Of a DNA stretch of 64,000 nucleotides, positions 1 through 44,832 are shown in pieces. Position numbers and translations under genes: made by a program. The notes below the pieces were generated by a model that did not search any database, had not been told where the DNA came from, and saw only the letters and a list, made by a program, of their open reading frames with translations. This stretch comes from Porpolomopsis calyptriformis. Its lineage: Eukaryota; Basidiomycota; Agaricomycetes; Agaricales; Hygrophoraceae. The stretch covers positions 2,108,001 through 2,172,000 of the forward strand of contig OX621168.1 of the NCBI GenBank assembly GCA_951640195.1. Direction: 5' to 3'. Within the stretch, counting starts at the first letter, position 1; every line of letters starts with the position of its first letter.

Positions 1-1
1 C

Positions 2-379
2 AAATGGTACAATATTCATCACTCCATCCTATGGGCAGAACGTGTATCTATTCAAAGATCCACTGGATTCTCTCCTTACTGGATAGTCCATGGAACCAAT
101 CCTCTCTTTCCCTTCGATCTCACCCAAGCTACCTTCCTAGTCCCACTGATGGATGCTCCGATCTCCCCAGCTGACCTACTAGCTACCCAAGCCTGTCAGC
201 TTCAAAAACAAGAGGAAGACCTAGCCCAGATCAAGCAACAATTACTGGATTCACAATTCAAATCAATTTGGGACTTCGAGAAACACCATGGAAAGCAAAT
301 CTGGGACTACAACTTTAAACCCAGAGCTCTTGTCCTCATCCGCTGTCATGATCCCAAACTGATTTGGTATCAAACTTAA
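2..379 (+). pseudogene. Ty3/gypsy integrase C-terminal fragment (element Z)
   Basis: Reading from base 2 gives an open frame to a TAA at 377-379. Its start (KWYNIHHSILWAE, then STGFSPYWIVHG and LFPFDL) is the typical region after the integrase catalytic core in agaricomycete Ty3/gypsy elements; the remainder is charged and Gln-rich. The 5' part lies outside the window. No chromodomain follows before the stop, so the end is truncated or belongs to a clade without one. The fragment is the oldest layer at this end: the downstream sequence was later split by element A. The integrase family is clear; the subfamily is not. Confidence 0.75.
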
Positions 380-867
380 CCAAAGATCATGTATTCAGCA
401 AGTAGCATCCTTAGCTCAAACATCCTCTATCTTATCTTGTCTTATCTTATCTTATCTTAGATAAGATATCACTGTCCCTCACATATTATCTTATCTCAGA
501 TAAGATACACTACTATCTTTACCTATGCTATCTTATCATGGACAATAGCATTCTTCCTCATTGTTCTCTAAGTCAGAATGACTCATATCCCATTTCTCTA
601 TTGTTCTGTCATTACTCCATTATTCTCTGAGTCACTATGACTCATATTAATCTCCTCCATTGTTCTCCTCATTGTCTGACTCATAGTGAGTCACAATTCA
701 AACTCCTCATTGTTCTTTTATCCATTGTTCTTATTTCCTATTGTTCTCAAACATATATAAAGGGCCCCCTTTTCACCAGTGAGGAGTTCAGTTCACTTTT
801 ACCCCACTTTATCCCCCCTCCCCCCCCTTTCCCTTGAACTCACCCCTAGTACTCAGTACCTAGTACT
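380..867 (+). promoter_or_regulatory. Probable LTR/3' region of element Z, left part
   Basis: No gene. The stretch has TATCT repeats and a palindromic AGATAAGATATC-type segment (about 430-510). It also has five TGA(C/G)TCA motifs within 115 bp (579-585, 628-634, 638-644, 677-683, 687-693), then a TATA box (ATATAAAG, about 752-759) and a pyrimidine-rich tract. This is the organisation of an LTR U3/R region in plus orientation, matching the integrase fragment just upstream. The LTR start cannot be fixed and only one copy is in the window. Element A interrupts it at 867/868; it continues at 16422. Confidence 0.5.
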
Positions 868-1256
868 TGTTATAAACTGGTTGTCGATGAGATGGTTTTA
901 CTTCAGAGAGCTCTGTCCCAAGACGGTGATAATGTCTCAAGTCCTAGTTATTGGGTTGCTAACGAGGAATCAGACTTAAAGTCTGAGTATGACTAACTAG
1001 GGGTTTATATACTGACTACACTACTGCGGATGAGTTAGTGTAAACACGAGGAATACATGCGACGAGTAGAGATAAGCATGATAGAAGACTCGGAGCATGT
1101 GAAAGGATGAAACATGATCGTCGGAAATGAAATGTGTCTTATCTAGGATATATGAAAAGATACGAAACTGTGGGGAATCCCAAGTAAAGATAAGACCTGT
1201 CCGACTAAGCGATAATAACTAACATAGAGAGAAAGTGAAAAATTACGTCCGTGACA
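868..1256 (-). repeat. Element A LTR (3' LTR in element orientation)
   Basis: 389 bp, TG...CA, nearly identical to 16033-16421 and flanked on its outer side by the GTACT duplication. It carries the same reverse-strand TATA box (TTTATATA on the plus strand) as its partner. Confidence 0.95.
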
Positions 1257-1290
1257 TACACCTCGTTTTTCGGGAAATTCGACCCGAATT

Positions 1291-2012
1291 TCAAACTTGG
1301 GTGGCGTCGGGCGTTTCGTTCTCTGAGGCCTGAGCTGGGGTTTCCTCAGTGGTGGGGGCCTCAACGACCACTGAGAGGGAAGCGATGGGGGTAGCTTCCG
1401 AGACTGCTTCAATGGGGGAAGGGGCTCGGACTGTCGCGACGTCGTCGTCGATCGGGTACTCTAAGTCGACGTTGATGGGGTATTCGACTGATTTCCCATA
1501 ATTGATTAACGTCTCCATCGTTGCGAGGTTGCGCTGGGTTTGGAGGAAATCCTCCCTGGAAAGTCGTTCAGCTCGACGAGCTTGATAATGATAGCGCAAG
1601 TGGTGACGTCGTAACAGTTGACCCATGTTCATTTCTTCTCCCATTGAAGCTCCCAACCTTTAAGCTCGCTCCGGTCCCAACGATCCTTCCAAAACATGAC
1701 ACTCTTTTCTGAAGCCTTGAGCTCAGCTTGTAAAACATCGCATTCTTGATGAAGTTCGTGATTCCAACTGCTCACACTGTTGTAGCTGGCCGTGAGGTGC
1801 GAGATGGTTATGGCGGGGTCTTCAGGAGGAGGGGTTTGCATAGGGTATTCCTTGAAGAAATCTTCGGCTCGTGCACGAGCTTGTCGGCGTAACTGTCGAG
1901 TGGAGGAGGTAGAGGTAGAGGGACCAGGAGTGGGGGAGTGGATGGCAGATGAAGGGATTCATCCAGCACGTCGGATGGCAACTTGAGGAGAGGGAGATCG
2001 AGTGGCAGGCAT
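1291..2012 (-). pseudogene. ORF3 of element A, coiled-coil protein of unknown function (broken)
   Basis: After the pol stop (2168-2170) a separate frame begins with ATG at 2012 (MPATRSPSPQ) and ends at 1291, immediately before the LTR. It holds one in-frame TGA after MPATRSPSPQVAIRRAG and a frameshift near 1640. Visible features are a Ser/Pro-rich N-terminus, QTPPPEDPAITISHL, a heptad-like stretch ending SVMFWKDRWDRSE, and an acidic Thr/Glu-rich tail. The same layout recurs intact in element C (43169-43747) and decayed in element E (19886-20585). It occupies the position used for env or other additional ORFs in some Ty3/gypsy clades, but no signal peptide or membrane segment is seen. Function unknown. 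Confidence 0.7.
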
Positions 2013-2167
2013 TGCGAATGATGGTTCTACGACATTGGTATTGAGTGAGTTTGTCGAAAGTGGGGAAAGACTGGATGGAATTGTATTAACGATTCTGAGT
2101 TTATAAGCGCCAACTCGATCTAAGAATAGAATTCAAAAAATGGACAGCCGGAATGATGACAAATGAG

Positions 2168-2581
2168 TTAAATCGCTGTTTGAATTGAGTCTTTGTAAGT
2201 CTTCACAATTTCCTTGGTGTGTCGCAAGACGTTCGATCGTTCTTCCCAAGTAGCTTCTTCGATCAGATAACCCTTCCATTTGACTAAATATTTTCGTCGG
2301 CGTTTAGCTCCGGAATGTTGAAGAATAGATTCGACTTCATATTCTTCTTCGTTCTCGATCAGATCTGGGGGAGGTTGAGATGTATCAGTAATATCAGGGT
2401 GGAGCGACTTATCTTCGACATTCGGTCTCAGGAGTGATACGTGAAAAACTGGGTGGAGCTTCCAAGTTCCAGGGATATCGATAAGGTACGCAAGATCCGA
2501 TACTCGTTTTAGGATCTTGAATGGTCCAGTTCTTCGGTTATCCAGCTTCTTGGTGGGTCGAGTCGTCTTGATGTTCTTGGT
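2168..2581 (-). pseudogene. Element A pol, C-terminal part with chromodomain
   Basis: This continues the integrase of element A on the far side of element B, beginning at the insertion point and ending at TAA 2168-2170. It contains the PVFHVSLLRP-like GPF/Y region and a chromodomain (EEYEVESIL, KYLVKWKGYLIEEATWEE). Chromodomains on integrases of chromoviruses are known to direct insertion to heterochromatin. The last residues (IVKTYKDSIQ) are shared with element E, showing that the two families are related. Confidence 0.8.
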
Positions 2582-2586
2582 ATCTA
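2582..2586. repeat. Target-site duplication of element B (ATCTA)
   Basis: ATCTA at 2582-2586 and again at 11344-11348, directly flanking the TG...CA ends of element B within the pol gene of element A. Confidence 0.95.
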
Positions 2587-2744
2587 TGTCATGAAATTGG
2601 CATTCACTCTCTTAAAATTTCTCTCTTTTCTTTGTTCTTTTCTTTTCTTTCTTATGATGGTTCTTTGGGGAGGGAGGCTGTCTTTATTGACAGCGGAAAC
2701 TACTTGTACAAAAGGAGGAGTCCATGTCTGACTAACTATTTATA

Positions 2745-3577
2745 CTAGTCCGTCTTGGCAATCTCCTGCACCATACTGTCCCTCAAGAACTCTACAAAAC
2801 TCGAGACTACTTGACCATCTAATGCGGCCAACTTGTTGCCCCAGTAGATTGCCCCATTAGTGTCACTGCCAGAGGCCTGCAACTCAGCAGCCTTCCCTTC
2901 AACAAAACCCATCGCTATCTTTCTCGCTTCCTCACCCAGCCAATTGTTGGTAGGACTCCACAACAAACTAGGAGGAACTTCCTCTTCCTCAATCTTGACG
3001 TTAACATTGGTCGATGACAAGGACAAATCTTCAACTAAAAAGATAAAGGATCAGCGGCTACGAAGAGAGCGAGAGAGTTAAGGGCATTACCACTAGATAA
3101 AGGACTTAATGGACCAGGGGTCCAAGGACGGAAAGGGGGACTGGCAGCCCAGTCAACTGCCTCCTTCTTGACGGAAGGAAGAGAGTCAGCCCACTTGTCG
3201 GACCCCCAATTAACCTGTTCCTCCAAAGGGAGCTGGGAAGTAGGGGGAGGGGCATCGTCATCCCAAGCTAAAAGAAGGAAAGCCTATTATCAACAAACAC
3301 AGACTAATAAAGACAAAACAAAATACTCACCAAGCGGATCCTCCATCAACCCACAAGCATGCTGGATTGGCCAGCGAACGAACGGACATTTCTTGACTTT
3401 GTGCTTGCCACCGCAAGCGAAACAGGAGAAGGAAGACCAACAGAGGTCGGCGTCGGAGGGGATGCGCTGGAGGTAGTAGTGAAATGAATCGCAATCGAGA
3501 AAGACAGGAGCAGTGCGGTGCACCACTCCAGACTGCTTGAAGAATCGGACGTAGTGGCCTTGGTGGGAAGGAGTCAT
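2745..3577 (-). CDS. LTR-embedded spliced gene, zinc-knuckle-like protein (5' LTR copy)
   Basis: Three exons on the minus strand: 3577-3331, 3267-3091 and 3034-2745 (247, 177 and 290 nt). Two GT-AG introns (63 and 56 bp) are both phase 1 and keep the frame, giving 237 residues. A TATA box lies about 45 bp upstream of the ATG (3627-3633) and AATAAA lies on the minus strand at 2689-2684, after the stop. The N-terminal third has a Cys/His cluster (CFACGGKHKVKKC: C-x2-C-x3-H-x4-C, one residue shorter than a classic CCHC knuckle). The middle is acidic and Pro/Trp-rich, and the C-terminus (WLGEEARKIAMGFVEGKA onward) looks helical. I do not recognise the family. It is antisense to the retrotransposon. 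Copies are at 9794-10626 (one nonsense codon) and 34560-35390 (intact). Confidence 0.8.
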
Positions 3578-3626
3578 GATGATTGACAAGGACTGAACTG
3601 AAGTGTAGGGATACAACCCCACACCT

Positions 3627-3633
3627 TTTATAT
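3627..3633 (-). promoter_or_regulatory. TATA box of the LTR-embedded gene
   Basis: TATAAAA on the minus strand inside GCATATAAAAGGTG, about 50 bp before the ATG at 3577. It is conserved in all three LTR copies (about 10676-10682 and 34504-34510) and diverges from the sense TATA some 300 bp away. Confidence 0.7.
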
Positions 3634-3933
3634 GCTCAGAAACAAAGGGAAGACCAAAAGGAGGTTCCTCAGTCAAAGAAGAGAAACCCGATACGCCGGG
3701 CAAGAGATAGAAACAACGGCGATCTCATGACCAGAAGAACAATAGAAACCAGTCATGAGATAACACAGCCTCATTCTGCGGAAGGCTATGCCCAATAGAA
3801 TTGAGTCATCAAAAGCACACAGCCTTTTGCAGAATGACTAGGAACAATGGCAAACCTTATTTGAAGGCTGTGAACAATAGAAAATGGGGTGACTGCGGAG
3901 GCTGACTCATAATGACTCCTATTTCAGAAATAC

Positions 3934-3974
3934 TATATAAACCCTGAGGGCGAAGCGGATCATCACTTCGTCCT
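3934..3974 (+). promoter_or_regulatory. Sense core promoter and predicted RNA 5' end of element B
   Basis: TATATAAA at 3934-3941. Thirty bases on lies CACTTCGTCCT (3964-3974), which is exactly complementary to the sequence two bases downstream of the LTR (4297-4307). The spacing fits a transcription start at about 3964, which would make the first 11 nt of the RNA the primer, as in Tf1. Confidence 0.7.
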
Positions 3975-4083
3975 CCTGTGAGATTACTTGTAGTAGCACG
4001 AACGCAATCAGAATCAACAGACTTCTTTTCCATCAGAACAAGAAAAGAGAAACATAAACCCATAACTATTGAGCCAATCGTTC

Positions 4084-4359
4084 ATGCCCATATTCCCTAA
4101 ACTCTCAGCAGAGGCACGCAACAGATTTAACTCACAGAACAACTTCTTTGTAGAAGTAAAACTAAACTCAGAAGGAATTATCACCCTTTACGAGGACGTC
4201 CCCATCAGAACTTTCTTCTACATCCTACTAGACTTATTAAGCTCCAAGGCCTGCCTTGTGATTGACAAAAAGACTTGCAACTACAGTTGTGACATTAGGA
4301 CGAAGTGTTGGAATCACACCGCAGACTGGTTATCCTGCTTAATATTGGACGACAAATGA
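4084..4359 (+). CDS. Short sense ORF spanning the R/U5-internal boundary of element B
   Basis: Begins MPIFPKLSAEARN, downstream of the predicted transcript start and upstream of gag; the stop is at 4357-4359, 65 bp past the LTR end. About 91 residues, hydrophobic in the middle (RTFFYILLDLLSSKACLVI). The LTR-encoded part is also open in the 3' LTR (from about 11133) and in the solo LTR on the minus strand (from about 34054), and several differences between copies are synonymous. It could be an upstream ORF that modulates gag translation, part of a spliced product, or chance. No known domain. Confidence 0.35.
   Translation: MPIFPKLSAEARNRFNSQNNFFVEVKLNSEGIITLYEDVPIRTFFYILLDLLSSKACLVIDKKTCNYSCDIRTKCWNHTADWLSCLILDDK
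4297..4307 (+). promoter_or_regulatory. Self-priming primer-binding site of element B
   Basis: AGGACGAAGTG, two bases after the 5' LTR, is a perfect 11-nt reverse complement of 3964-3974, just below the sense TATA box. This is the Tf1/sushi-type arrangement in which the 5' end of the element's own RNA primes reverse transcription, not a tRNA. Confidence 0.75.
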
Positions 4360-4486
4360 TACCATCTCCTCAGATGAGAAACGTTATTCTTTTCAGCAGC
4401 TAAAGGAAGCATAAACTACTTGGCCTACCATAAGCTTGCGAATAAGCCAATTACAATTCAAATAGATATATACGAAGACCCTAACT

Positions 4487-5917
4487 ATGAGTCAACCATA
4501 CCAGGATCCGAAAGATACCACTGTAACTGCGCTCAGTTACCAAGCAGGAATAGAGGACCCGGAGACTCCTGCAAGCTCCAAGAGTGAACCCCAAAAAGAG
4601 ACACCTGAAGGAGTATTCTGGGGGTCCACCACCAGTTTCTCTAGGACAGCAGATGAACCCGAAGATGAAGGAGATGATGAAACTGAAAAGGAGAAAGGGC
4701 TCTTCACCATGATAGGAAGGAAATTGAAAAGGAAGGCAGGAGGAGAACTTGAAGTGAGCAGAGCATTAAGTAGCAGAGGAAGGGGAATAGGAAGGGAAAG
4801 CACAACTTATGGGAGTCGAACTGGATTACTAGACCCAGTACCGACGAAACCAATAGAGAAAACAGGGCTCACCGGATGGGGACCGAAGATTCCGATTGCC
4901 CACTTGGGAATGGAAACACCGACCAAGGAACCAAAAGGGAAAGGAAGAGAGGAGCCACCTGAAGGAAGTCCCAAGAAAACTCCGATATTAAATCCATTTG
5001 CACCACCCCCTGGAGGATCAATAGGAGGAGGTGGGCAACCCGCAGGACCTGGAGGACCACCTGGAGGACAGCCACCTGGAGGACCGCCCCTAGGACCACC
5101 CCTAGGAGGACCAGGACCAGGACCAGCTAGAGGGGGAGTTCCAAATATAAGGATTCCTAAGCCGACAGAGCCGGACCATTTCGATGGGGACAGGAGCAAG
5201 TGGAGAACATTCCTCATCCAAGCCTACCACTATTTCCTCCATTTCCCTGACTTCTTCGATGAGACAACTAATTCCAGAAACCGATGTCTTTACTTATTGA
5301 ATTGGTTTACTGGACTTGCAAGGCCGTGGGCTGATGCAATATTGGTTACAAGAGATCTTCCACATGAATCTCTGATGCTGAGAGATTGGAGACTACTGTT
5401 AGAACGAGGAACCATTCTATATGGACCAATTAATGAAGTGCAGGATGCACGAGAAGCCCTAAGGACCATTAAACAGGAAAAATCGATCACGGATTATTAT
5501 GCTAAATTCCTTGAAAAGGCGCTCCAATGCGAATATGGAGAAGAGACCCTCGCCGAGATATTTTACCAAGGATTCAAAGATCAGATCAAAGACATCATGG
5601 TTACCATTGAGAGGCCCGGAACCTTGCAGGAATTATTGCAAGTGGCCTTAACCATTGAAGGAAGAATCTTAATAAGGGCCAAAGAAAAAAGAAGAGTCGA
5701 GCCCACCGGAGGCTACCGAAAACCTGTAGCCATCAAAGTCGCTCAACTAACAGAGGAAGAATGAAAAAGCCTGATGAAAGAAGGGCGATGCTTCTTCTGT
5801 AGACAAGCAGGTCATATGGCCAGAGCTTGCCCTAGAAAGAAATTTGGAAATATCCAAGCCAAGAAAGTTGATGAAGAAGAAAAGGAAGAGGGAGAGGAGG
5901 ATTTTGCTCAAGGCTGA
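4487..5917 (+). pseudogene. Element B gag
   Basis: The frame opens MSQPYQDPKDTTV and continues for about 425 residues to a TGA at 5762-5764 where homologous position and context expect Arg. It then continues to a zinc knuckle (CFFCRQAGHMARAC, C-x2-C-x4-H-x4-C) and stops at 5915-5917. Order: acidic N-terminus, a Gly/Pro-rich linker of GGPP-type repeats (about residues 175-215), the retrotransposon gag domain (HFDGDRSKWRTFLIQ to about residue 400), then the nucleic-acid-binding knuckle. Gag forms the virus-like particle. A GGATTTT heptamer at 5899-5905, before the stop, allows a -1 shift into pol. Confidence 0.9.
5899..5905 (+). promoter_or_regulatory. -1 ribosomal frameshift heptamer, element B
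   Basis: GGATTTT positioned as G_GAT_TTT in the gag frame. The -1 frame is open from here through the protease, while gag ends 12 bases later. The same heptamer occupies the gag/pol junction of elements C and D, and GGGTTTT that of A and E. Confidence 0.65.
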
Positions 5918-8900
5918 AGAAAGACTCTGCATTTTCTTTAGCCCGACCAAATAAGGACTTAAAGGACAAAGATCCGACTATGTACATTAGCGCCAACCCT
6001 AATGAAGGACAGATTTATACTCAAGTGAACCTTCATGAAGGAAAAAATGAATGGATGACCAAAGCCCTTATTGATTGCGGAGCATCCTCACTCTTTATCT
6101 CACCAAAGGTGGTAAAAAATCAGAAACTGAAAACTACACTACTAAAAAAACCCATCAAAATTACGAATGTTGACCAAACAATGAATCGAATGGGAAAAAT
6201 CACTCAGAAGGTTCAACTTAACCTAGACTTAGGAGGACATAAAATGAAAGAAGATTTCCTTATAGCAGGAATAGGAGAAGATGACTTAATCATTGGAATA
6301 GACTGGTTAAAGCAACACAACCCAGAAATCAACTGGGAAACAGAGAAAATTACCTTTAGCTGGTGCCCAAAGTTTTGTTAAACCAAGAAAGGAAGGAACT
6401 GCAAGAAAATGAAGATCCAGAAAATTAGAATGGAAGAAACAGAAATGGAATATTGGAGTCCAGATCTAGACAATACCTGGATACGAGAATGGAATGTACT
6501 AGGAGAATATCAACCTGAAAAAGGCGACCAGATCTTGATTCCGAAGAAAGGACTAGACAAACGAATAGCAGCAGGTTTCACTATATCTCAGAAGGTAGCA
6601 GAACCAACCACCATCAAAGAAGGGGCAAAAACCTTTGAAGAACTGGTACCAAAGTCTCTACATGACTATAGGGACGTCTTTGATAAAAAGGCATCGGAGA
6701 GACTACCACTTAGAAAAATGTATGATCACCCGATCAACCTTATACCCAAAAAACCACTCCCCAATAAAAAACCTTATGCAATGGCACCAATTGAGGCTAA
6801 AGCACTGAAAGAATTCATTGCTGAAAACCTAAAGAAGGGGTACATAGTCGAATCAGAATCTCGAGCTGCTTCACCAGTCTTCTTTATCAAGAAAAAGGAT
6901 GGGACACTAAGACTCATAGTGGATTATCGGGGATTAAACGATGCAACTGTGAAAGATCGATACCCTCTACCATTGACACAGAGACTACTCGATAACCTGG
7001 CTAGCGCAAAAGTCTTTACCACATTGGATGTGCGATGGGGATATAACAATATTCGGATCAAGGAAGGGGATGAATGGAAAGCTGCCTTTAATACAAAGGA
7101 AGGACTCTTTGAACCACAAGTAATGTGGTTCGGGTTAACGAATGCCCCAGCAACTTTTCAGTGAATGATGAATACTATTTTCCATGACCTAATTGGAAAA
7201 TATGTTGAAATATACATTGACGACATCCTTATATATTCGAAAGATGAAAAGGAACAACTAGGACATATCCAAGAAATACTCAAAAGGTTAAGAGAGAACG
7301 ATCTCTTTCTCAAACCAGAAAAATGCTACTTTTTCAAAGACTCTGTGGAATATCTAGGACACCTTATTAGCCAGGAGAAAATTGAGATGGATCCAGGAAA
7401 AGTCAAAGCAGTAATTGATTGGCTGACACCACAAAAAGTAAAAGAAGTGCAATCCTTTTTAGGATTTGCAAACTTCTATAGACGCTTCATTCCTGAGTTT
7501 TCCAAAACAGTGAGACCAATTACAGAGCTGTTAAGAAAAGGGAAGAAATGGGAATGGGGAGAGAGATAGGAACAAGCTTTTCAACTCCTTAAAAAGAGAT
7601 TCACCACAGCACCAATTTTAGCAATGGCGAACCCAGAAGAGCCATACATCTTAGAATGTGATGCCTCAGATTACGCCATTGGGTCTATTATTTCACAATA
7701 TGGAAAAGATGGAAAGATACATCCTATAGCCTTTTACTCAAGAGGAATGAATGACGCGGAAAGGAATTATGAAATTTATGACAAAGAACTGTTAGCCATA
7801 ATAGCGTCACTTGAAGAATGGAGACATTATCTGGAAGGGGCAAAACATCAAGTAACCATCTTGTCAGATCATCAGAATCTGCAGTATTTTGCCTCAGCAA
7901 AAACCCTAATGAGACAACAAGCAAGATGGAGCTTATTCCTAACAAGATTTGATTATATAATCAAACATCGGCCTGGAAGACTAGGGGGAAAACCAGATAA
8001 ATTGTCAAGACAAGCAGATTACCAGATAGAAGGAGAAGAAAACCAGGGACAGATTCTATTGAAGCCAGAAGTTTTCAAAATAAAAGCTCTATTTCGAGGA
8101 CATATGATAACAGTCAAAGATCACCCTATACTACAAAGAATTCGAGCCTCTGAAGCTTTCGACTCTGAAATCGAAGAAGCCTTGAAAATAGTTAAAGGAG
8201 GGATGCCAAGAAAACTCAGAAAAGGATTGGAAGACTGGAACACCGAGAATGGTCTAATCCTTTTCAAAGGAAAGGTCTATGTCCCAAAAGACGAGGAAAT
8301 AAGGAGGGATTTAGTACATCTGCATCATGATACCTTGGAAGGAGGGCATCAAGGAGAATACCGAACATTGGAACTACTCACCCGAAATTACTGGTGGCCG
8401 GGAATCACGACTTATGTCAAACATTATGTGAAAACCTGTGACACCTGTAATTGAAAGAAAAGATCCTATCACAGAGCCAAAGGAAGATTGACACCAATAC
8501 TACCTTCAGAAAGACTATGGGAGACGGTAACAAATGACTTTATTATAGAACTACCCAAATCGGAAGGTTACGATGCCATCTGGGTTGTGGTGGATCAGTT
8601 AACAAAAGAAGCTCATTTTATACCAACGACTACTAAGGTGGACACAGAAGAGACAGTAAAGCTATATATAAATCATATTTGGAGGCTACATGGGGTCCCA
8701 GAGAAAATGATTTCAGACCGCGGAACGCAATTCACATTGAAACTAATGAGGGGAATTTTCAAGAAACTTGGGATCGAAGGGGCCTACTCAACAGCATATC
8801 ACCCTCAAACTGACGGACAAACTGAACGCATTAACCAAGAGTTAGAACAATACCTCAGAACATTCTGTAATTATCGACAAAATGACTGGGCTAAGTTCTT

Positions 8901-9624
8901 ACCAATGGCAGAATTCGCCCACAATAACAATGAAAATTCGTCCACAAAAAGGACTCCATTCTATGCTGCAAGGGGATATCATCCAAAGATGGCCATCCCT
9001 CAGGCCGGAAAGTCTGAAGTGCCGAGAGCCCAAGATCTGACCGAAGAAATAAAAAGAGTTCAAGAAGAAATCAAGGCATCAATCAGGCTAGCCCAGAATA
9101 CAATGAAAGACTATTACGATAAAAAAACGGAAGAAGTACACAGGGAGGTTGGAGATAAGGTCTGGCTGGATGCAACAAACATCAGCACTACTGCCCCTAG
9201 CAAAAAACTGGCAGATAAGAGATTGGGACCCTTCAAAATAGAAAGGAAACTCTCAGACCAAGTCTACAAATTGAAATTACCAGGGACGTACTGAATGCAT
9301 CCAGTCTTTCATGGGAATTTACTCAGCACTTATGAAGATTCAGAAATAAAAGGGAGAAGATTGGAAGAACTGGAGGGAATAGAAATAGAAGGGGAGGAAG
9401 AGTACGAGGTTGACCAAATCCTGGATGGGAGGCTCTGGCGAAACCAAAAACAATATTTGGTACAGTGGAAGGGGTACTCTATTTCGGAAAACTCCTGGGA
9501 ACCTGGAAAAAATCTGGAGAATGCGGCGGAAAAGGTCTCGGAATTTCATGACAAGCATCCCGACTTCAAATTTGAGAGGAGAAGAGCTTTGGGTCCATCC
9601 TCGCATAGCTCCGGTGGACTCTAG
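5905..9624 (+). pseudogene. Element B pol (protease-RT-RNase H-integrase-chromodomain)
   Basis: One frame with five stops: TAA 6379-6381, TGA 7162-7164, TAG 7567-7569, TGA 8452-8454 and TGA 9292-9294. The TGAs fall at Arg-type positions (before MMNTIF, before KKRSYH, before MHPVFHGN). Protease: ALIDCGASSLF. RT: LIVDYRGLND, LDVRWGYNNIRI, and YIDDILIYS with both Asp present. RNase H: LECDASDYAIG. Integrase: His/Cys zinc region (HLHHDTLEGGHQG ... CDTC), then catalytic Asp in TNDFI, Asp in SDRGTQF and Glu in NQELEQYL. The chromodomain (EYEVDQIL, QYLVQWKGYSISENSWEP) is at the end. No frameshift is seen, so decay is recent. Confidence 0.93.
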
Positions 9625-9635
9625 GGAGGGGGTAA
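9624..9635 (+). promoter_or_regulatory. Polypurine tract of element B
   Basis: GGGAGGGGGTAA directly before the 3' LTR start (9636); primes plus-strand DNA synthesis in LTR retrotransposons. Confidence 0.75.
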
Positions 9636-11343
9636 TGTCATGAAATTGGCGTTCACTCTCTTAAAATTTCTCTCTTTTCTTCGTTCTTTTCTTTTCTTTC
9701 TTATGACGGTTCTTTTGGGAGGGAGGCTGTCTTTATTGACAGTGGAAACTACTTGTACAAAAGGAGGAGTCCATGTCCGACTAACTATTTATACTAGTCC
9801 GTCTTGGCAATCTCCTGCACCATACTGTCCCTCAAGAACTCTACAAAACTCGAGACTACTTGACCATCTAATGCGGCCAACTTGTTGCCCCAGTAGATTG
9901 CCCCATTAGTGTCACCGCCAGAGGCCTGCAACTCAGCAGCCTTCCCTTCAATGAAACCCATTGCTATCTTTCTCGCTTCCTCACCCAGCCAATCATTGGT
10001 AGGACTCCACAACAAACTAGGAGGAACTTCCTCTTCCTCAATCTTGACGTTAACATTGGTCGACGACAAGGACAAATCTTCAACTAAAAAGATAAAGGAT
10101 CAGCGGCTACGAAGAGAGCGAGAGAGTTAAGGGCATTACCACTAGATAAAGGACTTAATGGACCAGGGGTCCAAGGACGGAAAGGGGGACTGGCAGCCCA
10201 GTCAACTGCCTCCTTCTTGACGGAAGGAAGAGAGTCAGCCCACTTGTCGGACCCCCAATTAACCTGTTCCTCCAAAGGGAGCTGGGAAGTAGGGGGAGGG
10301 GCATCGTCATCCCAAGCTAAAAGAAGGAAAGCCTATTATCAACAAACACAGACTAATAAAGACAAAACAAAATACTCACCAAGCGGATCCTCCATCAACC
10401 CACAAGCATGCTGGATTGGCTAGCGAACGAACGGACATTTCTTGACTTTGTGCTTGCCACCGCAAGCGAAACAGGAGAAGGAAGACCAACAGAGGTCGGC
10501 GTCGGAGGGGATGCGCTGGAGGTAGTAGTGAAATGAATCGCAATCGAGAAAGACAGGAGCAGTGCGGTGCACCACTCCAGACTGCTTGAAGAATTGGACG
10601 TAGTGGCCTTGGTGGGAAGGAGTCATGATGATTGACAAGGACTGAACTGAAGCGTAGGGATACAACCCCACACCTTTTATATGCTCAGAAACAAAGGGAA
10701 GACCAAAAGGAGGTTCCTCAGTCAAAGAAGAGAAACCCGATCCACCGGGCAAGAGATAGAAACAACGGCGATCTCATGACCAGAAGAACAATAGAAACCA
10801 GTCATGAGATAACACAGCCTCATTCTGCGGAAGGCTATGCCCAATAGAATTGAGTCATCAAAAGCACACAGCCTTTTGCAGAATGACTAGGAACAATGGC
10901 AAACCTTATTTGAAGGCTGTGAACAATAGAAAATGGGGTGACTGCGGAGGCTGACTCATAATGACTCCTATTTCAGAAATACTATATAAACCCTGAGGGC
11001 GAAGCGGATCATCACTTCATCCTCCTGTGAGATTACTTGTAGTAGCACGAACGCAATCAGAATCAACAGACTTCTTTTCCATCAGAACAAGAAAAGAGAA
11101 ACATAAACCCATAACTATTGAGCCAATCGTTCATGCCCATATTCCCTAAACTCTCAGCAGAGGCACGCAACGGATTTAACTTGCAGAACAACTTCTTTGT
11201 AGAAGTAAAACTAAACTCAGAAGGAATTATCACCCTTTACAAGGACGTCCCCATCAGAACTTTCTTCTACATCCTACTAGACTTATTAAGCTCCAAGGCC
11301 TGCCTTGTGATTGACGAAAAGACTTGCAACTACAGTTGTGACA
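9636..11343 (+). repeat. 3' LTR of element B
   Basis: 1708 bp, the same length as the 5' LTR and nearly identical, followed by the ATCTA duplication at 11344-11348. The predicted RNA start carries one C/T change (CACTTCATCCT), so its complementarity to the PBS is one G-U wobble short of perfect. Confidence 0.95.
9794..10626 (-). pseudogene. LTR-embedded spliced gene, 3' LTR copy with nonsense codon
   Basis: Same three-exon structure as 2745-3577. Exon 1 has TGG changed to TAG (10418-10420) just after the Cys/His motif, at KKCPFVR, truncating the product before the first intron. Exons 2 and 3 remain open. Because the two LTRs were identical at insertion, this loss postdates integration and shows that the 3' copy is not now needed. 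Confidence 0.7.
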
Positions 11344-17268: not shown

Positions 17269-18039
17269 TTACATAGCCCATTTCCTTCCCTTCCCCTTCT
17301 TTTCCTTAGAGTCTGACCCCTTTTCCATCCAAGCCATCAGCCTATCCATTTGTTTGTCCATCTTGGCCTGTGCTCTCCTCCAACCCTCCAATGCCTCAGC
17401 TTCCCTCACGATGGCCTTTCGGACTGCATTCCGCTTCTCTTCCAACCCTACCGCCCAATCCTCTACTGCCTTCTCCATCTTCCCGCCTATCTCCCAAAGC
17501 TCTGTAAGCCTCCGGTGCCCCTCCCACACCAACCCACTATCCACACTCGACTGCCACGCCCTCTTCCAGACCCAGGTGTTCATCTCCTCCTCGCTCTCAC
17601 CCTCATCTCCACTCTGGTCATCCTCACCCTCTGAATCAACCACTGTCACCTCCCTTGCATCCCCCTTTATCTCCCCGGATCCTCGCACCTGCCTTACCGG
17701 CCTTGGAACCACCTTTGAAGGCTGCTTTTGCCTCGGCTTCACCTCCACGCTCACCTTCCACTTCGACCCACTAGACTTGGAACACGATGCATGGTCCTGT
17801 GCACACGGACCACACACCCCACCTCCTGGGTACTTCACGCAGTGGTTGCATGCTAGCTCATGACACTAAGAGATGTACATTAGATCATACATGCTAATAA
17901 AAATAAAAACCACACTTACCTGCATGACGGATTTGACCTGTCTGCCCTTCTTCGACGTTTCCTCCCCCACCCTGACCTCATCCTCACCGTTCCCAATGCG
18001 TTCCGACATCTCCGTTGCTGTTCCCCCCCTCTCTGTCAT
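17269..18039 (-). CDS. Two-exon Cys-rich hypothetical protein
   Basis: Exon 1 is 18039-17920 (MTERGGTATEMSERIGNGED...) and exon 2 is 17865-17269, joined by a 54-bp GTAAGT...TAG intron (17919-17866) at a codon boundary, giving about 238 residues. The splice brings together a Cys/His cluster right after the junction: CHELACNHC, then CGPCAQDHASC, plausibly zinc-binding. A basic linker, an acidic Asp/Glu/Ser tract (about residues 100-125) and a long coiled coil follow (GGKMEKAVEDWAVGLEEKRN and onward), ending Lys-rich. I do not recognise the family. The frame is free of stops although almost everything around it is transposon debris. The start could lie in a further upstream exon. Confidence 0.55.
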
Positions 18040-23071: not shown

Positions 23072-26000
23072 GATGGTGCAATGAAAGCCCTGCCATTAGC
23101 ACTGAATGTACTGTATCCAAGACAAATGAAACCGATCCTCTTTACGACTCCACACTTCCCCTTCAACCAACCCTCACACTTGGACAGTTAATCCAAGGGC
23201 AACAGAGCTTCTTGATAGAAGCTGTAGTAACTATGATAGATAGTGCACGGCGGTACCCCATGGCCTGTCTCCTCGACTGTGGTGCTACCGGAAACTTCAT
23301 GGACTGGAGCTGGGCCAAGCGAGTGAACTGGATAACCCATAGACTGGAGTCTCCAACCTCTGTAAGAAATGCCGATGGAACCCTCAATAAAGGAGGACCG
23401 ATTGAAGAAGAGGCTGATGCCCTCTTGATGATAGAAGACCACCAAGAATACCTGACCCTAGAGGTTGTTGACTTAGGTGAAAAGCAGAAGATTGTCCTGG
23501 GGCTGCCATGGCTTGAGGTGCATAACCCGCAGGTTGACTGGGCCAGGTGGACCATCAACTTTGTACGGTGTGCTGATAAGCATTGCTGGGGCACTAACAC
23601 CAAGTCTATAGCCCAACAACAACTGCTAAATGATACTATCCTAGTAGACTCATCTCCACCTACTTCCTCCCTTGATGCTGAAACCTATGCGCATGAGCGA
23701 CCATGCATGTATGCACATCCCCCCACTACCCCTGGCTTTGCAGCTATGCATGCGCATGAGTGACCATGTGTGTATGCGCATCCTCTTACGGCTTTTGCAG
23801 CTGCCTCCTCTATGCATGCGCATGAGCAACCGTGTGTGTATGCACATCTCCCTACTGCTTCTTCAGCTACCTCCTTTATGCATGCGCATGAACAACCACA
23901 TGTGTATGCGCATCCTCCTACCGCTCCTACCCCTGCTGCGTGTGCTAATGCTTTCACTCCTGGGAGCTCTGTGCATGCGCATGAGCGACCGCACATGCAT
24001 GTGCACCCTCCTACCACTCCTGCCCTCCCCTCCAGTGTATCTCAACCTGCACACATCAAATCTGGTTGACTTGCAGCTACCCCCCCCACTGCCTGTGCTA
24101 ACGCTTTCACTCCTGGAGGTCCTGTGCATGCGCATGAGCAACCAAGCATGTATGCGCATCCTCCTACTCCTCCTGGCTTCCCCCTTAGTGCATCTCAGCC
24201 TGTGTTCATCAGATCCAAGCAACTCATGCTTCCATCCTCTGCTGCCCCTCCCTTTACACATACCGGGATGGAATGTCGCACAGCAGTGGCTACAAGGGAT
24301 GATGCCTGGAATGCTTCATCCAGTGTGGAACAAGATATTGTCAAGTTCATCCCAGAGAAGTACCGTGGCTTTGCAGATGTATTCCGCAAGTCATTTTTTG
24401 ATCAGCTCCCTAAACGATCTGAGTTTGACCATGCTATCCACCTTGACAATTCATTCACCCCCCAACGAGGGAAGCTGTATCCATTATCCCCCCTGGAACA
24501 AGAGAAACTGGATGAGTTCATTGAAGAGAACCTCTCCACTAGGTGAATCCGTCCCTCAAAATCTTCACAGGCTGCTCCCTTCTTCTTTGTGAACAAGACA
24601 GATGGAGGCCTAAGGCCTACTCAAGACTACCGTTATCTAAACTCACACACCATTCATGACCGTTACCCCCTTCCTCTCATCTCAGAGATCTTCGACAGTG
24701 TAAAACAATCCAAGTACTTCTCCAAGCTTGATATTCGCTGGGGCTTCAACAATGTTAGGATCAAGGAAGGCAATGAATGGAAGGCAGCTTTCATCACCAA
24801 CAGGGGGCTCTTTGAGCCCACTGTAATGTTCTTTGGGCTAACCAACTCTCCTGCCTCATTCCAATGGATGATAGATGTCTGCTTTCATGCAGCATTAGCA
24901 ACTGGCCATGTCAAGGTCTACATCGATGATGTGCTCATCTACACTGACACCCTTGAGGAGCATGAGAAGGTTGTATGAGAAGTCCTCCAAACATTCTGCG
25001 CTTGTAACTTGTCATGCAAGCCTACCAAGTGTGCCTTTGAACAGACCCAGATTGAATACCTAGGCTCAATCATTGAGCAGGGCAGGGTTGAAATGCACCC
25101 TAACAAGATCTCTGCTATTGTCAACTGGTCTCCCCCCACAAAGGTCAAGGCTGTCCAAGCCTTCCTAGGGACGCTTAATGAATACCGTCACTTTATCAAA
25201 GACTTCTCCACAATTGCACGACCCCTTCATGACCTTACTCGAAAGGATACTCCCTGGAGATGGACGGACTGGGAACAAGGATCTTTTGATGGACCCAAAG
25301 CTGCCATCACGAGTGCACCTGTGCTACGAATTCCAGACCCCAAGCTACCCTACAAACTTGAAGCCGATGCCTCTGACTTTGCACTTGGTGCAATTCTCTC
25401 CCAACTCCATGATGATAATCTCTGGCACCCCACTGCCTACTACTCACGAACCATGACCCCACCTGAATGAAACTATCCTATTCATGATAAAGAACTACTA
25501 GTGATTATAGCTGCCCTTGAAGAATGGCGACACTACTTAGAGGGCGCACAGCACACTATTGCCATCCGATCTGACAATATTGCACTCAAGTACTTCATGA
25601 CGAATCATAACCTCTCAAGGCAACAAGCCCGATGGGCTACCTACCTATCCCATTTCGACTTCATCATTGAACACAACCCTGGGAAAACTAACAAGGCTGA
25701 TGGTCTATCACGGCAACCAGATCACCTTCCTGCCTCTCCTGACAACACTAACCAAGTGTTACTCCCAAGCACCCTTTTCCGGAGTGTGGCTATGATTGAA
25801 GGTGCGCATGAACAACTGCGTGTGTATGTGCAGCTCCCAACCACTCCTTCACCTGCTGGAGTTATACTTGCTAGTGAGAGTGAGAGACTTGATGGTAGGC
25901 TACGACTAGGGACCCTTCCTGGCCATATTAGAAGCAAACTTGAGGACAAGTCCACAGGATGGACGCAAGACCAGGGAATCACCTTTGACGAATGGCGATG

Positions 26001-33841: not shown

Positions 33842-35548
33842 TGTCACAACTGTAGTTGCAAGTCTTTTCATTAATCACAAGGCAGGCCTTGGAGCTCAAT
33901 AAGTCTAGTAGGATGTAGAAGAAGGTTCTGACAGGGACGTCTTTGTATAGAGTGATGATTCCTTCTGAATTAAGTTTTACTTCTACAAAGAAGTTGTTCT
34001 GCAGGTTGAATCCATTGCGTGCCTCTGCTGAGAGTTTAGGGAATATGGGCATGAACGGTTGGCTTAGTAGTTGTGTTTTGTGTTTCTCTTTTCTTGTTCT
34101 GATGGAAAAGAAGTCTGATGATTCTGATTGCATTCGTGCTACTACAAGTAATCTCACAGGAGGACGAAGTGATGATCCGCTTCGCCCTCAGGGTTTATAT
34201 AGTATTTCTAAAATAGGAGTCACTATGAGTCAGCTTCCGCAGTCACCCCATTTTCTATTGTTCACAGCCTCCGGTTTAAGGTTTGCCATTGTTCTTAGTC
34301 ATACTGTGGAAGGCTGTGTTGTTTTGATGACTCAACTCTATTGGGCATAGCCTTCCGCAGTATCAGGCTGTGCTGTCTCATGACTGGTTCCTATTGTTCT
34401 TCTAGTCATGAGATCGCTGCTGTTTCTATCTCTTGTCCGGTGTATCGGGTTTCTCTTCTTTGACTGAGGAACCTCCTTTTGGTCTTCCCTTTGTGTCTGA
34501 GCATATAAAAGGTGTGGGGTTGTATCCCTACGCTTCAGTTCAATCCTTGTCAATTCATCATGACTCCCTCCCACCAAGGCCACTACGTCCGATTCTTCAA
34601 GCAGTCTGGAGTGGTGCACCACACTGCTCCTGTCTTCCTCGATTGCAATTCGTTTCACCACTACCTCCAGCGCATCCCCTCCGACGCTGACCTCTGTTGG
34701 TCTTCTTTCTCCTGCTTTGCTTGCGGTGGCAAGCACAAAGTCAAGAAGTGTCCGTTCGTTCGCTGGCCAATCCAGCATGCTTGCGGTTTGATGGAGGATC
34801 CGCTTGGTGAGTATTTTGTTTTGTCTTTATTAGTCTGTGTTTGTTGATAATAGGCTTTCCCTTCTTTAGCTTGGGATAATGACGCCCCTCCCCCTACTTC
34901 CCAGCTCCCTTTGGAGGAGCAGGTTAATTGGGGGTCTGACAAGTGGGCTGATTCCCTCCCTTCTGTCAAGATAGAGGCAGTTGACTGGGCTGCCAGTCCC
35001 CCCTTCCGTCCTTGGACCCCTGGTCCATTGAGTTCTTTATCTAGTGGTAAGCTTCTCAATTCCCTCCCTTTCTTCATGATTATTAACTCTTTATTCTTAG
35101 TGGAAGATTTGTCGTCATCGTTGACTAATGTCAATGTCAAGATTGAGGAGGAAGAAATTCCTCCCAGTTTGTTGTGGAGTCCCACCAACGATTGGTTGGG
35201 TGAGGAAGCGAGAAAGATAGCGATGAGTTTCGTTGAAGGGAAGGCTGCCGAGTTGCAGGCCTCCGGTGGTGACACCAATGGGGCAATCTACTGGGGTAAT
35301 AAGTTGGCCACAATAGATGGTCAAGTAGTGTCGAGTTTTGTAGAGTTCTTGAGGGACAGTATGGTGCAGGAGATTGCCAAGACGGACTAGTATAATTAGC
35401 TAGTCGGACATGGACTCCTCCCTTTGTACAAGTAATTTCTACTACCAATAAAGACAGCCCTCCTCCCAAAAGAACTGTCATAAGAAAGAAAAGAAAAGAA
35501 CGAAGAAAAGAGAGAAATTTTAAGAGAGTGAATGCCAATTTCATGACA
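33842..35548 (-). repeat. Solo LTR of the element B family
   Basis: 1707 bp, reverse orientation to element B, TG...CA, with GATTC duplications at 33837-33841 and 35549-35553. It is clearly more diverged from the two LTRs of element B than those are from each other, so it came from another insertion. It carries an intact copy of the LTR-embedded gene on the plus strand. Confidence 0.95.
34560..35390 (+). CDS. LTR-embedded spliced gene, zinc-knuckle-like protein (solo LTR copy, intact)
   Basis: Exons 34560-34806, 34870-35046 and 35101-35390 (247, 177 and 290 nt, the same lengths as the copy at 2745-3577) with 63- and 54-bp GT-AG introns in phase 1. TATAAAA at 34504-34510. It encodes 237 residues with CFACGGKHKVKKC, the WLGEEARKIAM segment and the ending MVQEIAKTD. 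Relative to the 5' LTR copy of element B, exon 3 differs at roughly 28 codons, about two-thirds of them silent, while intron 2 is barely alignable. All splice sites and the stop are kept. Nothing else of the retrotransposon remains here, so this copy behaves as a free-standing gene. Family unknown. Confidence 0.8.
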
Positions 35549-43168: not shown

Positions 43169-43747
43169 CTAGGATAAGTCCTTGTCGGAGACGGCGGTCG
43201 ACAGGGAAATAATGTCGGCCAGGGAAGTATCGTCGTCGTCGGGGATGGTGATAGGGTTCGACGACGAACTGGGGGGAACGATGAGTGGACCTGGGAAAAC
43301 AGGGGGAGCCAGGGAATCGAGATGGGGAAGTACCTTTGCGACTTCCTCGTATTTTGCCTCCCAGTGCTTGGCCTGTTCTCGCCAATATTCACTCGCTCTT
43401 CTCTTTCCGTCCAAGCTCATTCCTTGATTATACAACTCTTCATTTAATCTCGCAATTTTGTTTTTGTAGTATTCGACGTCCTTCTGCAACAACTCGATGA
43501 TTTGCTCGGGTGGGATGGGTGGTGTGATGATTTCCTCTGGCCATATGGGAAGGTCCCAATTACGTGCGCATCGGTTATGCTGCCAGAGTTGTCCGGCAAG
43601 CTCAGCTTCACTGTAGGCAGAGGAGGTGGAAGCGAGCAGAGGGAGAGCGCGATGAGGGGGTTGTCCTCCAGTGGACATACGAGGAGTGCGGGGTGGACGA
43701 CCACCAGTAGACTTGTGAGCAGTTTGGTGCGAGCGTTCTGTGGGCAT
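43169..43747 (-). CDS. ORF3 of element C, intact coiled-coil protein
   Basis: 192 residues from ATG 43747 (MPTERSHQTAHKSTGG) to a stop 80 bp before the LTR, without interruption although gag and pol of the same element are broken. Order: Arg/Pro-rich N-terminus (about 1-50), LPIWPEEIITPPIPPEQI (about 75-90), a coiled coil (VEYYKNKIARLNEELYNQG to SEYWREQAKHWEAKYEE, about 92-140), then a Pro/Ser-rich, acidic tail (ITIPDDDDTSLADIISLS). No signal peptide or membrane segment. The PP motif followed by a coiled coil ending in a Trp-containing (E/F)(Y/F)W-x-x-x segment is shared with elements A and E. It could be a particle or chromatin-associated accessory protein; function unknown. Confidence 0.7.
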   Translation of the reverse strand: MPTERSHQTAHKSTGGRPPRTPRMSTGGQPPHRALPLLASTSSAYSEAELAGQLWQHNRCARNWDLPIWPEEIITPPIPPEQIIELLQKDVEYYKNKIARLNEELYNQGMSLDGKRRASEYWREQAKHWEAKYEEVAKVLPHLDSLAPPVFPGPLIVPPSSSSNPITIPDDDDTSLADIISLSTAVSDKDLS

Positions 43748-43871
43748 AGCGATGTCGATTTCTGAGAGTGAAAGATGGAGATGAAAGAGATTATAAGGAT
43801 GAGTCGGAGTTTGGAAAAGGTGACAAAGGTGAAAAATATAAACGAGGGGAGTTGATACCGTGAAAGAATGA

Positions 43872-44832
43872 TTAGGTCGCCGTTTGAATTAACTGTTCGT
43901 ATTCTAGAATTCATTCTTTCGCATGGAGGAGGTTCTTCTTCGGCTCCCAAGTTGCTTCTTCAATGGGATAGCCAACCCATTTGACTAAATACGTACAACG
44001 TCGGGTAGACCTGTGATGTTGGAGAATTTGTTCAACCTCATATTCTTCTTTTTCTTGAATGACATCTGGAGGTGGGCGGAGATCATTGTCTACTTCCTCC
44101 GGGTGGAGATTGGAGTTAATGTTAGCAGGTCTTAGGAGTGAAACATGAAAGACGTTCTGTATTTTCCATGATAAGGGAAGGGCCAGGTGATAAGAGACTT
44201 TTCCGATTCTTTCCAGAACTTTGAATGGTCCAGTGTGTCGGACATCAAGTTTGAGGGTTGGACGACCTGTTTTTAAGTTACGGGTATCAAGATAAACAAA
44301 TTGACCTATTTGGAGTTGGGTATCTTTCCGTTTGCGATCTGCAAAGCGTTTTATGGTTTCGGCCGTTGTTTCCAGAGCTTTTGTGGCTTCTTCACGGGCT
44401 TCTGTGAGATGATCGTGAAAGGCATCTGCTGCGGGGTTGGGAGTAGAGGTCACAGGGACGGATGGGATGAAGGGATGTTGGCCAGTATCAAGGTAAAAGG
44501 GAGTGTGTTTCATTGAGGAGTGCTGTCAGTTATTATACGTGAATTCAGCTGGGGATAGCCAGTTGGACCAATCGTCTTGCATAAAATTTGTATATAAACG
44601 AAGGTATTGTTCAAGTTCTTGATTGGTGCGTTCCGTTTGACCATCAGTTTGGGGATGATAAGCGGTGGATAGACCGGAGATAATTCCCAAATGAGTGTTG
44701 AGAGCTTTCGCGAATTTGGAAGCGAATTGAGTTCCTCAATCGGTTATGATCTTCTTTGGTAAGCTGTGGTGTTTCCATACATTGTCCCTGAAGAGTTTTG
44801 CGACTCCTTCTGCAGAAATATTCGATGTCGTC
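43872..44832 (-). pseudogene. Element C pol, integrase C-terminus and chromodomain
   Basis: Continues the integrase beyond solo LTR F: KLFRDNVWKHHSLPKKIITD, a TGA where the SDRG-type Arg is expected (about 44736), GTQFASKF, then MKHTPFYLDTGQHP, FKVLERIGKVSYHLALP, VFHVSLLRPANIN and a chromodomain (EEYEVEQIL, TYLVKWVGYPIEEATWEP). A TGA at 43911-43913 replaces Arg; the frame then ends TAA 43872-43874. Confidence 0.88.

What the first reader, a model, noticed from the sequence alone, without database searches (positions are those of the whole stretch)
2587..4294. Complete spliced gene carried antisense inside the LTR of a Ty3/gypsy element
The 1.7-kb LTR of the B family contains a minus-strand gene with its own TATA box, ATG, three exons with two in-phase GT-AG introns, stop and AATAAA. 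Because it lies in U3, every insertion delivers two copies and every solo LTR leaves one intact gene. The product has an unusual C-x2-C-x3-H-x4-C motif and no family I recognise. LTRs are normally regulatory; a conserved intron-containing antisense gene would be a new way for a retrotransposon (or a captured host gene) to spread. Introns survive because the gene is antisense to the genomic RNA and is not spliced from it.
Basis: partly seen in the sequence, partly recalled or inferred. Interest (0 to 1): 0.92.

Follow-up and report, generated by a model that had tools for sequence, protein, structure and literature searches.

The report
Antisense spliced gene inside fungal retrotransposon LTR
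A fungal Ty3/gypsy retrotransposon appears to carry, backwards inside each of its long end repeats, a complete three-exon protein gene that selection has preserved about as strongly as the element's own gag gene, so repeats usually seen as mere switches also spread a protein gene of unknown family.

Summary
The 1,708-bp LTRs of element B (2587-4294, 9636-11343; TSD ATCTA) and a solo LTR (33842-35548; TSD GATTC) carry a minus-strand gene with three exons, two GT-AG introns and 237 codons. In 60 distinct LTR copies from the same 33.5-Mb genome both introns keep GT..AG in 60 of 60. CDS length is 714 or 711 nt in 57 of 60, while intron lengths drift. Variants carried by six or more copies fall at codon positions 24/15/91, p=5e-18. 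dN/dS is 0.115 over 57 copies; gag gives 0.176 over 13. An 11-nt match between R and PBS (Tf1-like self-priming) places U3/R near 3962-3964, so the whole gene lies in U3, diverging from the sense promoter. 'Every solo LTR leaves an intact gene' is too strong: 32 of 60 copies are intact, and the window's 3' LTR copy has a stop. No match in Pfam or in a 5.8-billion-protein set poor in fungal relatives, and only insignificant PDB hits. Best reading: an element-encoded, LTR-resident antisense accessory protein, probably a nucleic-acid-binding regulator. Function is inferred; transcription was not testable here.

The parts
2587..4294 (+). 5' LTR of element B (U3 2587 to about 3962, R-U5 to 4294)
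   Evidence: 98.6% identical to 9636-11343; TG..CA ends; TSD ATCTA
9636..11343 (+). 3' LTR of element B; its gene copy has an in-frame stop at codon 69
33842..35548 (-). solo LTR of the same family, TSD GATTC; gene on + strand about 34560-35390, frame intact with a 54-nt intron 2
3331..3577 (-). exon 1 (codons 1-82 and first base of codon 83; C-x2-C-x3-H-x4-C motif)
   Evidence: common variants at codon positions 3/6/28
3268..3330 (-). intron 1, 63 nt, GT..AG
   Evidence: GT..AG in 60 of 60 copies, 61-65 nt
3091..3267 (-). exon 2 (acidic, Trp/Pro-rich linker)
   Evidence: common variants at codon positions 13/5/19, p=0.018
3035..3090 (-). intron 2, 56 nt, GT..AG
   Evidence: GT..AG in 60 of 60 copies, 53-58 nt
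2745..3034 (-). exon 3 with TAG stop (KIEEEE motif, C-terminus predicted helical at low confidence)
   Evidence: common variants at codon positions 8/4/42; dN/dS 0.062 in the first 40 of 57 copies
2683..2688 (-). AATAAA poly(A) signal of the antisense gene, inside the LTR
   Evidence: kept exactly in 46 of 57 copies
3625..3632 (-). antisense TATA box (TATAAAAG), 47 nt upstream of the ATG
   Evidence: 57 of 57 copies
3934..3941 (+). sense TATA box of the element
   Evidence: 56 of 57 copies
3633..3933 (.). divergent promoter region between the two TATA boxes, with AP-1/Gcn4-like heptamers at 3903-3909 and 3802-3808
   Evidence: heptamers kept in 52 and 53 of 57 copies; name of the motif recalled
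3964..3974 (+). start of R: 11 nt complementary to the primer binding site (self-priming)
   Evidence: exact in 29 of 60 copies, 28 more differ only by one CpG transition, 3 otherwise
4297..4307 (+). primer binding site (AGGACGAAGTG), 2 nt after the 5' LTR
4487..9294 (+). gag-pol of element B (interrupted in this copy by in-frame stops and frame changes)
   Evidence: Retrotrans_gag, rve, SH3_Tf2-1 in Pfam; ORFs

Best explanation
The U3 of this self-priming Ty3/gypsy family is a divergent transcription unit. One TATA box drives the genomic RNA rightward. A second, about 300 bp upstream and facing left, drives a short mRNA that is spliced twice, polyadenylated before the LTR ends, and encodes a 26-kDa accessory protein. 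The introns survive retrotransposition because the genomic RNA carries the gene only as its complement at the 3' end (U3). The protein (basic N-terminus with a CCHC-like knuckle, acidic Trp/Pro-rich middle with a KIEEEE motif, probably helical C-terminus) most likely binds nucleic acid and regulates the element's own LTR transcription or RNA, working like HBZ/APH or as proposed for Retand TRP28 proteins, but unrelated to them. Shown: gene anatomy, conservation, location in U3, selection on the protein. Inferred: transcription, splicing, function. My split: real, selected spliced antisense gene 0.95; regulator of the element itself about 0.5.
For: Splice sites 60 of 60; CDS 714/711 nt in 57 of 60 while introns vary 61-65 and 53-58 nt. 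Variants in six or more copies: N 39, S 91, nonsense 0, against a neutral N/S expectation of 2.33. Codon-position bias in each exon in the spliced frame. dN/dS 0.115 over 57 copies; at dS 0.09-0.2 it is 0.159 (243 of 1,596 pairs), against gag 0.176 at mean dS 0.164 over 13 copies. Both TATA boxes nearly invariant, with AP-1-like heptamers between. U3/R placed by the self-priming match, chance 0.002 in random trials. Exon 1 pI 8.6, residues 83-170 pI 4.05. 30 of 30 loci returned by the protein search lie in an LTR of this family.
Against: No transcript, protein or function data. No homologue to borrow a function from. The knuckle has one residue fewer than a canonical zinc knuckle (recalled consensus) and Pfam does not call it. 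AlphaFold models of exons 1 and 3 are too weak (pLDDT 52.8 and 51.4) to support a fold. Variants in two to five copies (N 61, S 43, nonsense 8) look no more purified than private ones (N 48, S 37, nonsense 8). The noncoding 5' part of the LTR is also conserved (26.5 distinct indels per kb against 12.6 in exons). A protein acting in trans from very many copies should relax selection on each copy; why it is kept is unexplained.
Confidence: 0.55

Rival explanations
1. Copy-number controller: the protein (or its mRNA, complementary to the U3 end of genomic RNA) restrains the element, as Ty1 p22 (recalled) or APH-2 do, and is kept because moderation avoids host damage or excludes competitors.
For: Gene copies outnumber internal regions: 336 exon matches in 150 scored candidates against 13 near-full-length gag matches and 15 full-length matches of a 294-residue pol piece, so the dose would rise with solo LTRs. 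The mRNA is complementary to U3 by construction.
Against: Selection among copies normally favours a copy that escapes its own brake, yet nonsense alleles are absent from variants in six or more copies (0; 16 in rarer classes). An RNA-only effect would not give codon-position bias.
Confidence: 0.2
2. Captured host gene carried as a passenger: a cellular gene entered U3 and is spread by the LTR; the host or the gene itself, not the element, is the beneficiary.
For: Two spliceosomal-type introns; no family in Pfam; no match inside the four pol-related elements looked at other than weak ones (best E 0.027, in a Gag knuckle region).
Against: No copy outside an LTR in 30 of 30 protein-search loci, although that search is saturated by the family. 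Private variants carry nonsense at about the expected rate (8 seen, about 6 expected from X/S 0.172 and 37 S), so landed copies seem to decay instead of serving the host.
Confidence: 0.15
3. Chance open frame in a young repeat family, kept open by recent common ancestry.
For: Copies read are 84-99% identical to the window's LTR.
Against: Mean dS 0.33 with dN/dS 0.115; codon bias p=5e-18 in the spliced frame; distinct indels 12.6 per kb in exons against 160 in introns and 304 in the 3' flank (26.5 in the 5' flank).
Confidence: 0.02
4. The 1.7-kb unit is an independent mobile element with 5-bp TSDs, and the 'solo LTRs' are its own insertions, mobilised in trans by the gypsy machinery.
For: 40 of 58 full LTR copies are single units with an exact 5-bp TSD, more than the internal regions found; it carries its own gene.
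Against: LTR-LTR recombination gives the same structure. A solo unit transcribed from its R would not contain U3 upstream, so it has no obvious replication route.
Confidence: 0.04

Closest known systems
HTLV-1 HBZ and HTLV-2/3/4 APH proteins
   Same: Antisense, spliced mRNA driven by the LTR's bidirectional promoter; several repress LTR transcription (PMC10186651, passages read).
   Different: Retroviral; driven from the 3' LTR. That most of their coding sequence lies outside the LTR is recalled, not read. No sequence relation found. Here all exons, promoter and poly(A) signal lie in U3, so both LTRs and solo LTRs carry the gene.
Retand/Grande/RIRE2 antisense ORFs (TRP28) of plant Ty3/gypsy elements
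   Same: Conserved antisense accessory gene in a Ty3/gypsy element, proposed DNA-binding regulator (PMC11963269, abstract and passages read).
   Different: Located internally between pol and the 3' LTR, not in the LTR; plant; TRP28 (PF04195) domain, whereas Pfam finds nothing here.
HIV-1 LTR antisense gene (HAP)
   Same: Proposed antisense gene in U3-R of an LTR (PMC1654176, abstract and outline read).
   Different: The abstract describes a transcript overlapping the start of sense RNAs by 25 nt; here the gene has two introns and its TATA box lies about 330 bp upstream of the sense start.
MMTV Sag
   Same: Protein encoded in an LTR (recalled; a paper on sag capture appeared only in a listing).
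   Different: Sense strand, unrelated protein, retrovirus (recalled).
Tf1/Tj1 self-priming Ty3/gypsy elements of fission yeasts
   Same: PBS complementary to the 5' end of the element RNA (PMC4600332, passages read); SH3_Tf2-1 domain in integrase.
   Different: The passages read mention no LTR gene; LTR lengths of those elements were not checked.

Membership tests
Self-priming Ty3/gypsy (Tf1/sushi type) | PBS complementary to the 5' end of the element RNA | tested here: met
   11 nt, 3964-3974 with 4297-4307, 23 nt after the sense TATA; chance 0.002; the minimum-energy fold of 3962-4330 pairs them, though the leader is not unusually stable (z -0.38). RNA 5' end not measured. Exact in 29 of 60 LTR copies, 28 more with one CpG transition.
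Self-priming Ty3/gypsy (Tf1/sushi type) | Ty3/gypsy domains and integrase type | tested here: met
   Retrotrans_gag, rve, SH3_Tf2-1 above Pfam cut-offs; polypurine tract before the 3' LTR. No RT tree was built.
HBZ/APH antisense retroviral genes | Antisense transcript, spliced, from an LTR promoter | not testable with these tools
   No RNA data; conserved TATA 57 of 57 and GT..AG 60 of 60 are indirect.
HBZ/APH antisense retroviral genes | Sequence homology (bZIP in HBZ) | tested here: not met
   No Pfam match at E up to 1; three PDB hits at E 0.13-0.43, none a bZIP.
Retand-type antisense ORF | TRP28 (PF04195), located between pol and the 3' LTR | tested here: not met
   No Pfam match; gene lies within U3 of both LTRs.
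Retroviral zinc knuckle proteins | C-x2-C-x4-H-x4-C (recalled consensus) | tested here: not met
   Spacing is C-x2-C-x3-H-x4-C, kept in 31 of 32 intact proteins; no Pfam call. A weak BLAST match (E 0.027) of this stretch falls in the Gag knuckle region of a related element.
Solo LTRs | Single LTR flanked by a 5-bp TSD | tested here: met
   40 of 58 full LTR copies exact, 5 more with one mismatch, 13 without.

The most novel reading that the evidence does not exclude
The LTR is itself a mobile gene cassette. Every insertion plants two copies, LTR recombination leaves a free-standing spliced gene, and a family of probably more than a hundred such genes forms a dispersed trans-acting regulator of the element (and possibly of host genes near solo LTRs) from a divergent U3 promoter: LTRs as protein-coding genes, not only switches.
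Probability: 0.35. Interest if true: 0.88.

Novelty: new variant of a known kind. Interest (0 to 1): 0.74.

Why it matters
Antisense accessory genes are known in a few retroviruses and plant retrotransposons, but a complete intron-bearing gene confined to U3 means that solo LTRs, usually treated as regulatory debris and commonly masked before gene annotation (general knowledge), can hold protein genes with a history of selection. It gives a simple route by which introns pass through retrotransposition (the gene rides as its complement) and a testable system for how a retroelement keeps a trans-acting gene in many copies.

Tried and rejected
Homologues: two searches of the 5.8-billion-protein set and two viral-contig scans found no relative; Pfam gave no family; three PDB sequence hits at E 0.13-0.43 were dismissed. 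A control search with the element's Gag found one relative only (P0002), so the set seems to hold little fungal material and the negative is weak. Sister families: four pol-related elements (41-46% identity over a 294-residue pol piece) were fetched (L071-L074). None has the gene in its own sequence: best weak matches E 0.027 (L071, in its Gag knuckle region), 1.1 (L073), 0.32 (L074); in L072 the strong matches belong to a B LTR into which that element is inserted. Their LTRs are 112 bp (L071), 624 (L072) and 359 (L074); no LTR pair was found in L073. The window's other three families have LTRs of 391, 425 and 369 bp. So I found no diverged relative of the gene outside this family, but the genome search is saturated by near copies and cannot exclude one. 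Fold search was not run because both models were below pLDDT 55. A sense-strand coding explanation was set aside: the position bias follows the spliced antisense frame in each exon and is scrambled (29/64/67) when introns are read through. Rows dropped before the statistics (position classes) and 46: L045, L046 (old, many stops) and L040 (truncated), leaving 57 of 60; these statistics map copies onto the window copy, leaving out inserted bases and skipping gapped codons. In one search, six of nine exon indel calls are not multiples of three; all six lie in one stretch of exon 2 (LTR minus-strand 1097-1131) where a subfamily differs and the shifts cancel, so I read them as alignment artefacts. 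Private variants give an N/S ratio 0.56 of neutral, and exon 3 singletons still show position bias (6/6/23), so 'neutral decay' after insertion is approximate. An early guess that the host is Heterobasidion was not tested and is not claimed (one search was a paper search only). A tree of the 60 LTRs put the two full-element LTR pairs that were read (window; L015/L021) at separate places among solo LTRs. Nine paper searches found no report of this arrangement; only open-licence papers are held there.

Full report
What is there. The window holds a Ty3/gypsy element (B) from 2587 to 11343 on the + strand with 1,708-bp LTRs, TG..CA ends and TSD ATCTA, and a solo LTR of the same family at 33842-35548 with TSD GATTC. 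The minus strand of the LTR reads: TATAAAAG 3632-3625, ATG 3577, exon 1 to 3331, intron 3330-3268, exon 2 3267-3091, intron 3090-3035, exon 3 3034-2745 (TAG), AATAAA 2688-2683. The product has 237 residues (26.3 kDa, pI 4.96).

Copies. The genome (33.5 Mb, 17 contigs) gave 43 DNA matches with 40 of 295 candidates scored and 336 protein matches, exon by exon, with 150 of 570 candidates scored; both are lower bounds, and at up to three exon matches per copy the second suggests more than a hundred copies. I read 60 distinct LTR copies with a match of at least 1.4 kb. Both introns keep GT..AG in 60 of 60. CDS length is 714 or 711 nt in 57 of 60; intron 1 is 61-65 nt and intron 2 53-58 nt. Copies whose intron 2 differs by one or two bases still have exon 3 in frame once spliced, as splicing predicts. 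32 of 60 are fully intact (ATG, single terminal stop). Among 58 full-length LTR copies 40 have exact and 5 one-mismatch 5-bp TSDs, i.e. look solo; 13 do not; 25 of the 40 are intact. The window's 3' LTR copy has a stop at codon 69; its 5' copy and the solo copy are open. Near-full-length gag matches number 13 and full-length matches of a 294-residue pol piece 15, so most gene copies read sit in solo LTRs.

Selection. In 57 copies (3 of 60 dropped as truncated or badly decayed), variants carried by six or more copies number 39 nonsynonymous, 91 synonymous and 0 nonsense; the neutral expectation from the noncoding LTR spectrum is N/S 2.33 and X/S 0.17. Variants in two to five copies are 61, 43 and 8, private ones 48, 37 and 8, i.e. 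much closer to neutral. Codon positions of the six-or-more class are 24/15/91 (p 5e-18), and 3/6/28, 13/5/19 and 8/4/42 in exons 1, 2 and 3, against 30/41/25 (p 0.12) in the neighbouring 5' stretch and 29/64/67 when the introns are read through; the 2-5 class of the control stretch gives p 0.03. dN/dS is 0.107 for 26 intact equal-length copies and 0.115 for all 57 (mean dS 0.33); at dS 0.09-0.2 it is 0.159 (243 of 1,596 pairs), against 0.176 for gag in 13 copies at mean dS 0.16. Widely shared, i.e. repeatedly transposed, variation is strongly purified; rare variation looks closer to decay. So the protein matters to lineages that transpose. Distinct indels per kb are 12.6 in exons, 160 in introns, 304 in the 3' flank and 26.5 in the 5' flank, which holds promoter, R and U5 and is itself conserved.

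Where in the LTR. The 11 nt at 3964-3974 are complementary to the PBS at 4297-4307, two bases after the LTR, with a 0.2% chance in random trials. They lie 23 nt after the sense TATA box, and the predicted leader fold pairs them, without unusual overall stability. This is the Tf1/Tj1 self-priming arrangement (PMC4600332, passages) and places the start of the genomic RNA at about 3962-3964. The 11-mer is exact in 29 of 60 copies, 28 more differ by one CpG transition, 3 otherwise. The antisense unit is therefore wholly in U3, and the 301 bp between the two TATA boxes (kept in 57 of 57 and 56 of 57) look like a divergent promoter with two AP-1/Gcn4-like heptamers (52 and 53 of 57; motif names recalled).

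How it probably works. Genomic RNA carries the gene once, as its complement, in the 3' U3; reverse transcription copies it into both LTRs with introns intact. From either LTR, or from a solo LTR, the leftward promoter can make an mRNA that ends inside the LTR. The protein's make-up (basic N-terminus with a CCHC-like motif, acidic Trp/Pro-rich middle, KIEEEE in 30 of 32 intact copies, conserved C-terminus predicted helical at low confidence) suggests a nucleic-acid-binding regulator. This step is inference. Transcription and splicing are inferred from conservation.

Compared with what is known. Antisense regulatory genes driven by LTRs are known in deltaretroviruses (HBZ, APH; PMC10186651, passages), claimed in HIV-1 (PMC1654176, abstract and outline) and common in plant Retand elements between pol and the 3' LTR (PMC11963269, abstract and passages). 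None of these, as far as I read, is a multi-exon gene confined to U3 of a retrotransposon. Nine paper searches found no report of such an arrangement. I rate it a new variant of a known kind.

Limits.

Noticed in passing
43169-43888 (-): Open frame of 239 codons, sense, between pol and the 3' LTR of the D element (LTRs 42720-43088/49393-49761); its 201-residue core has 110 matches in the genome, many without stops and down to about 53% identity: a conserved extra 3' ORF with no Pfam match.
   Followed up: partly
17269-17865 (-): Cysteine-rich 198-codon frame repeated in the genome (25 matches, many near 80% identity), no Pfam match; possibly an element or gene-family protein.
   Followed up: partly
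L072 (1271-7747): A different gypsy element with 624-bp LTRs is inserted inside a B-family LTR, near the intron 1/exon 2 border of its antisense gene.
   Followed up: no
23648-24592 (+): Internally repeated stretch (self-matches at 23687-24215; Met/Cys/His-rich in one frame) between the gag and pol parts of the C element.
   Followed up: no
62039-63268 (-): Helicase-like 409-codon frame, resembling a Helitron/PIF1-type helicase by eye (recalled, not tested).
   Followed up: no
3974-3964, LTR copies: The self-priming 11-mer shows two alternative CpG transitions (20 and 8 of 60 copies), suggesting methylation-type decay of LTRs.
   Followed up: partly
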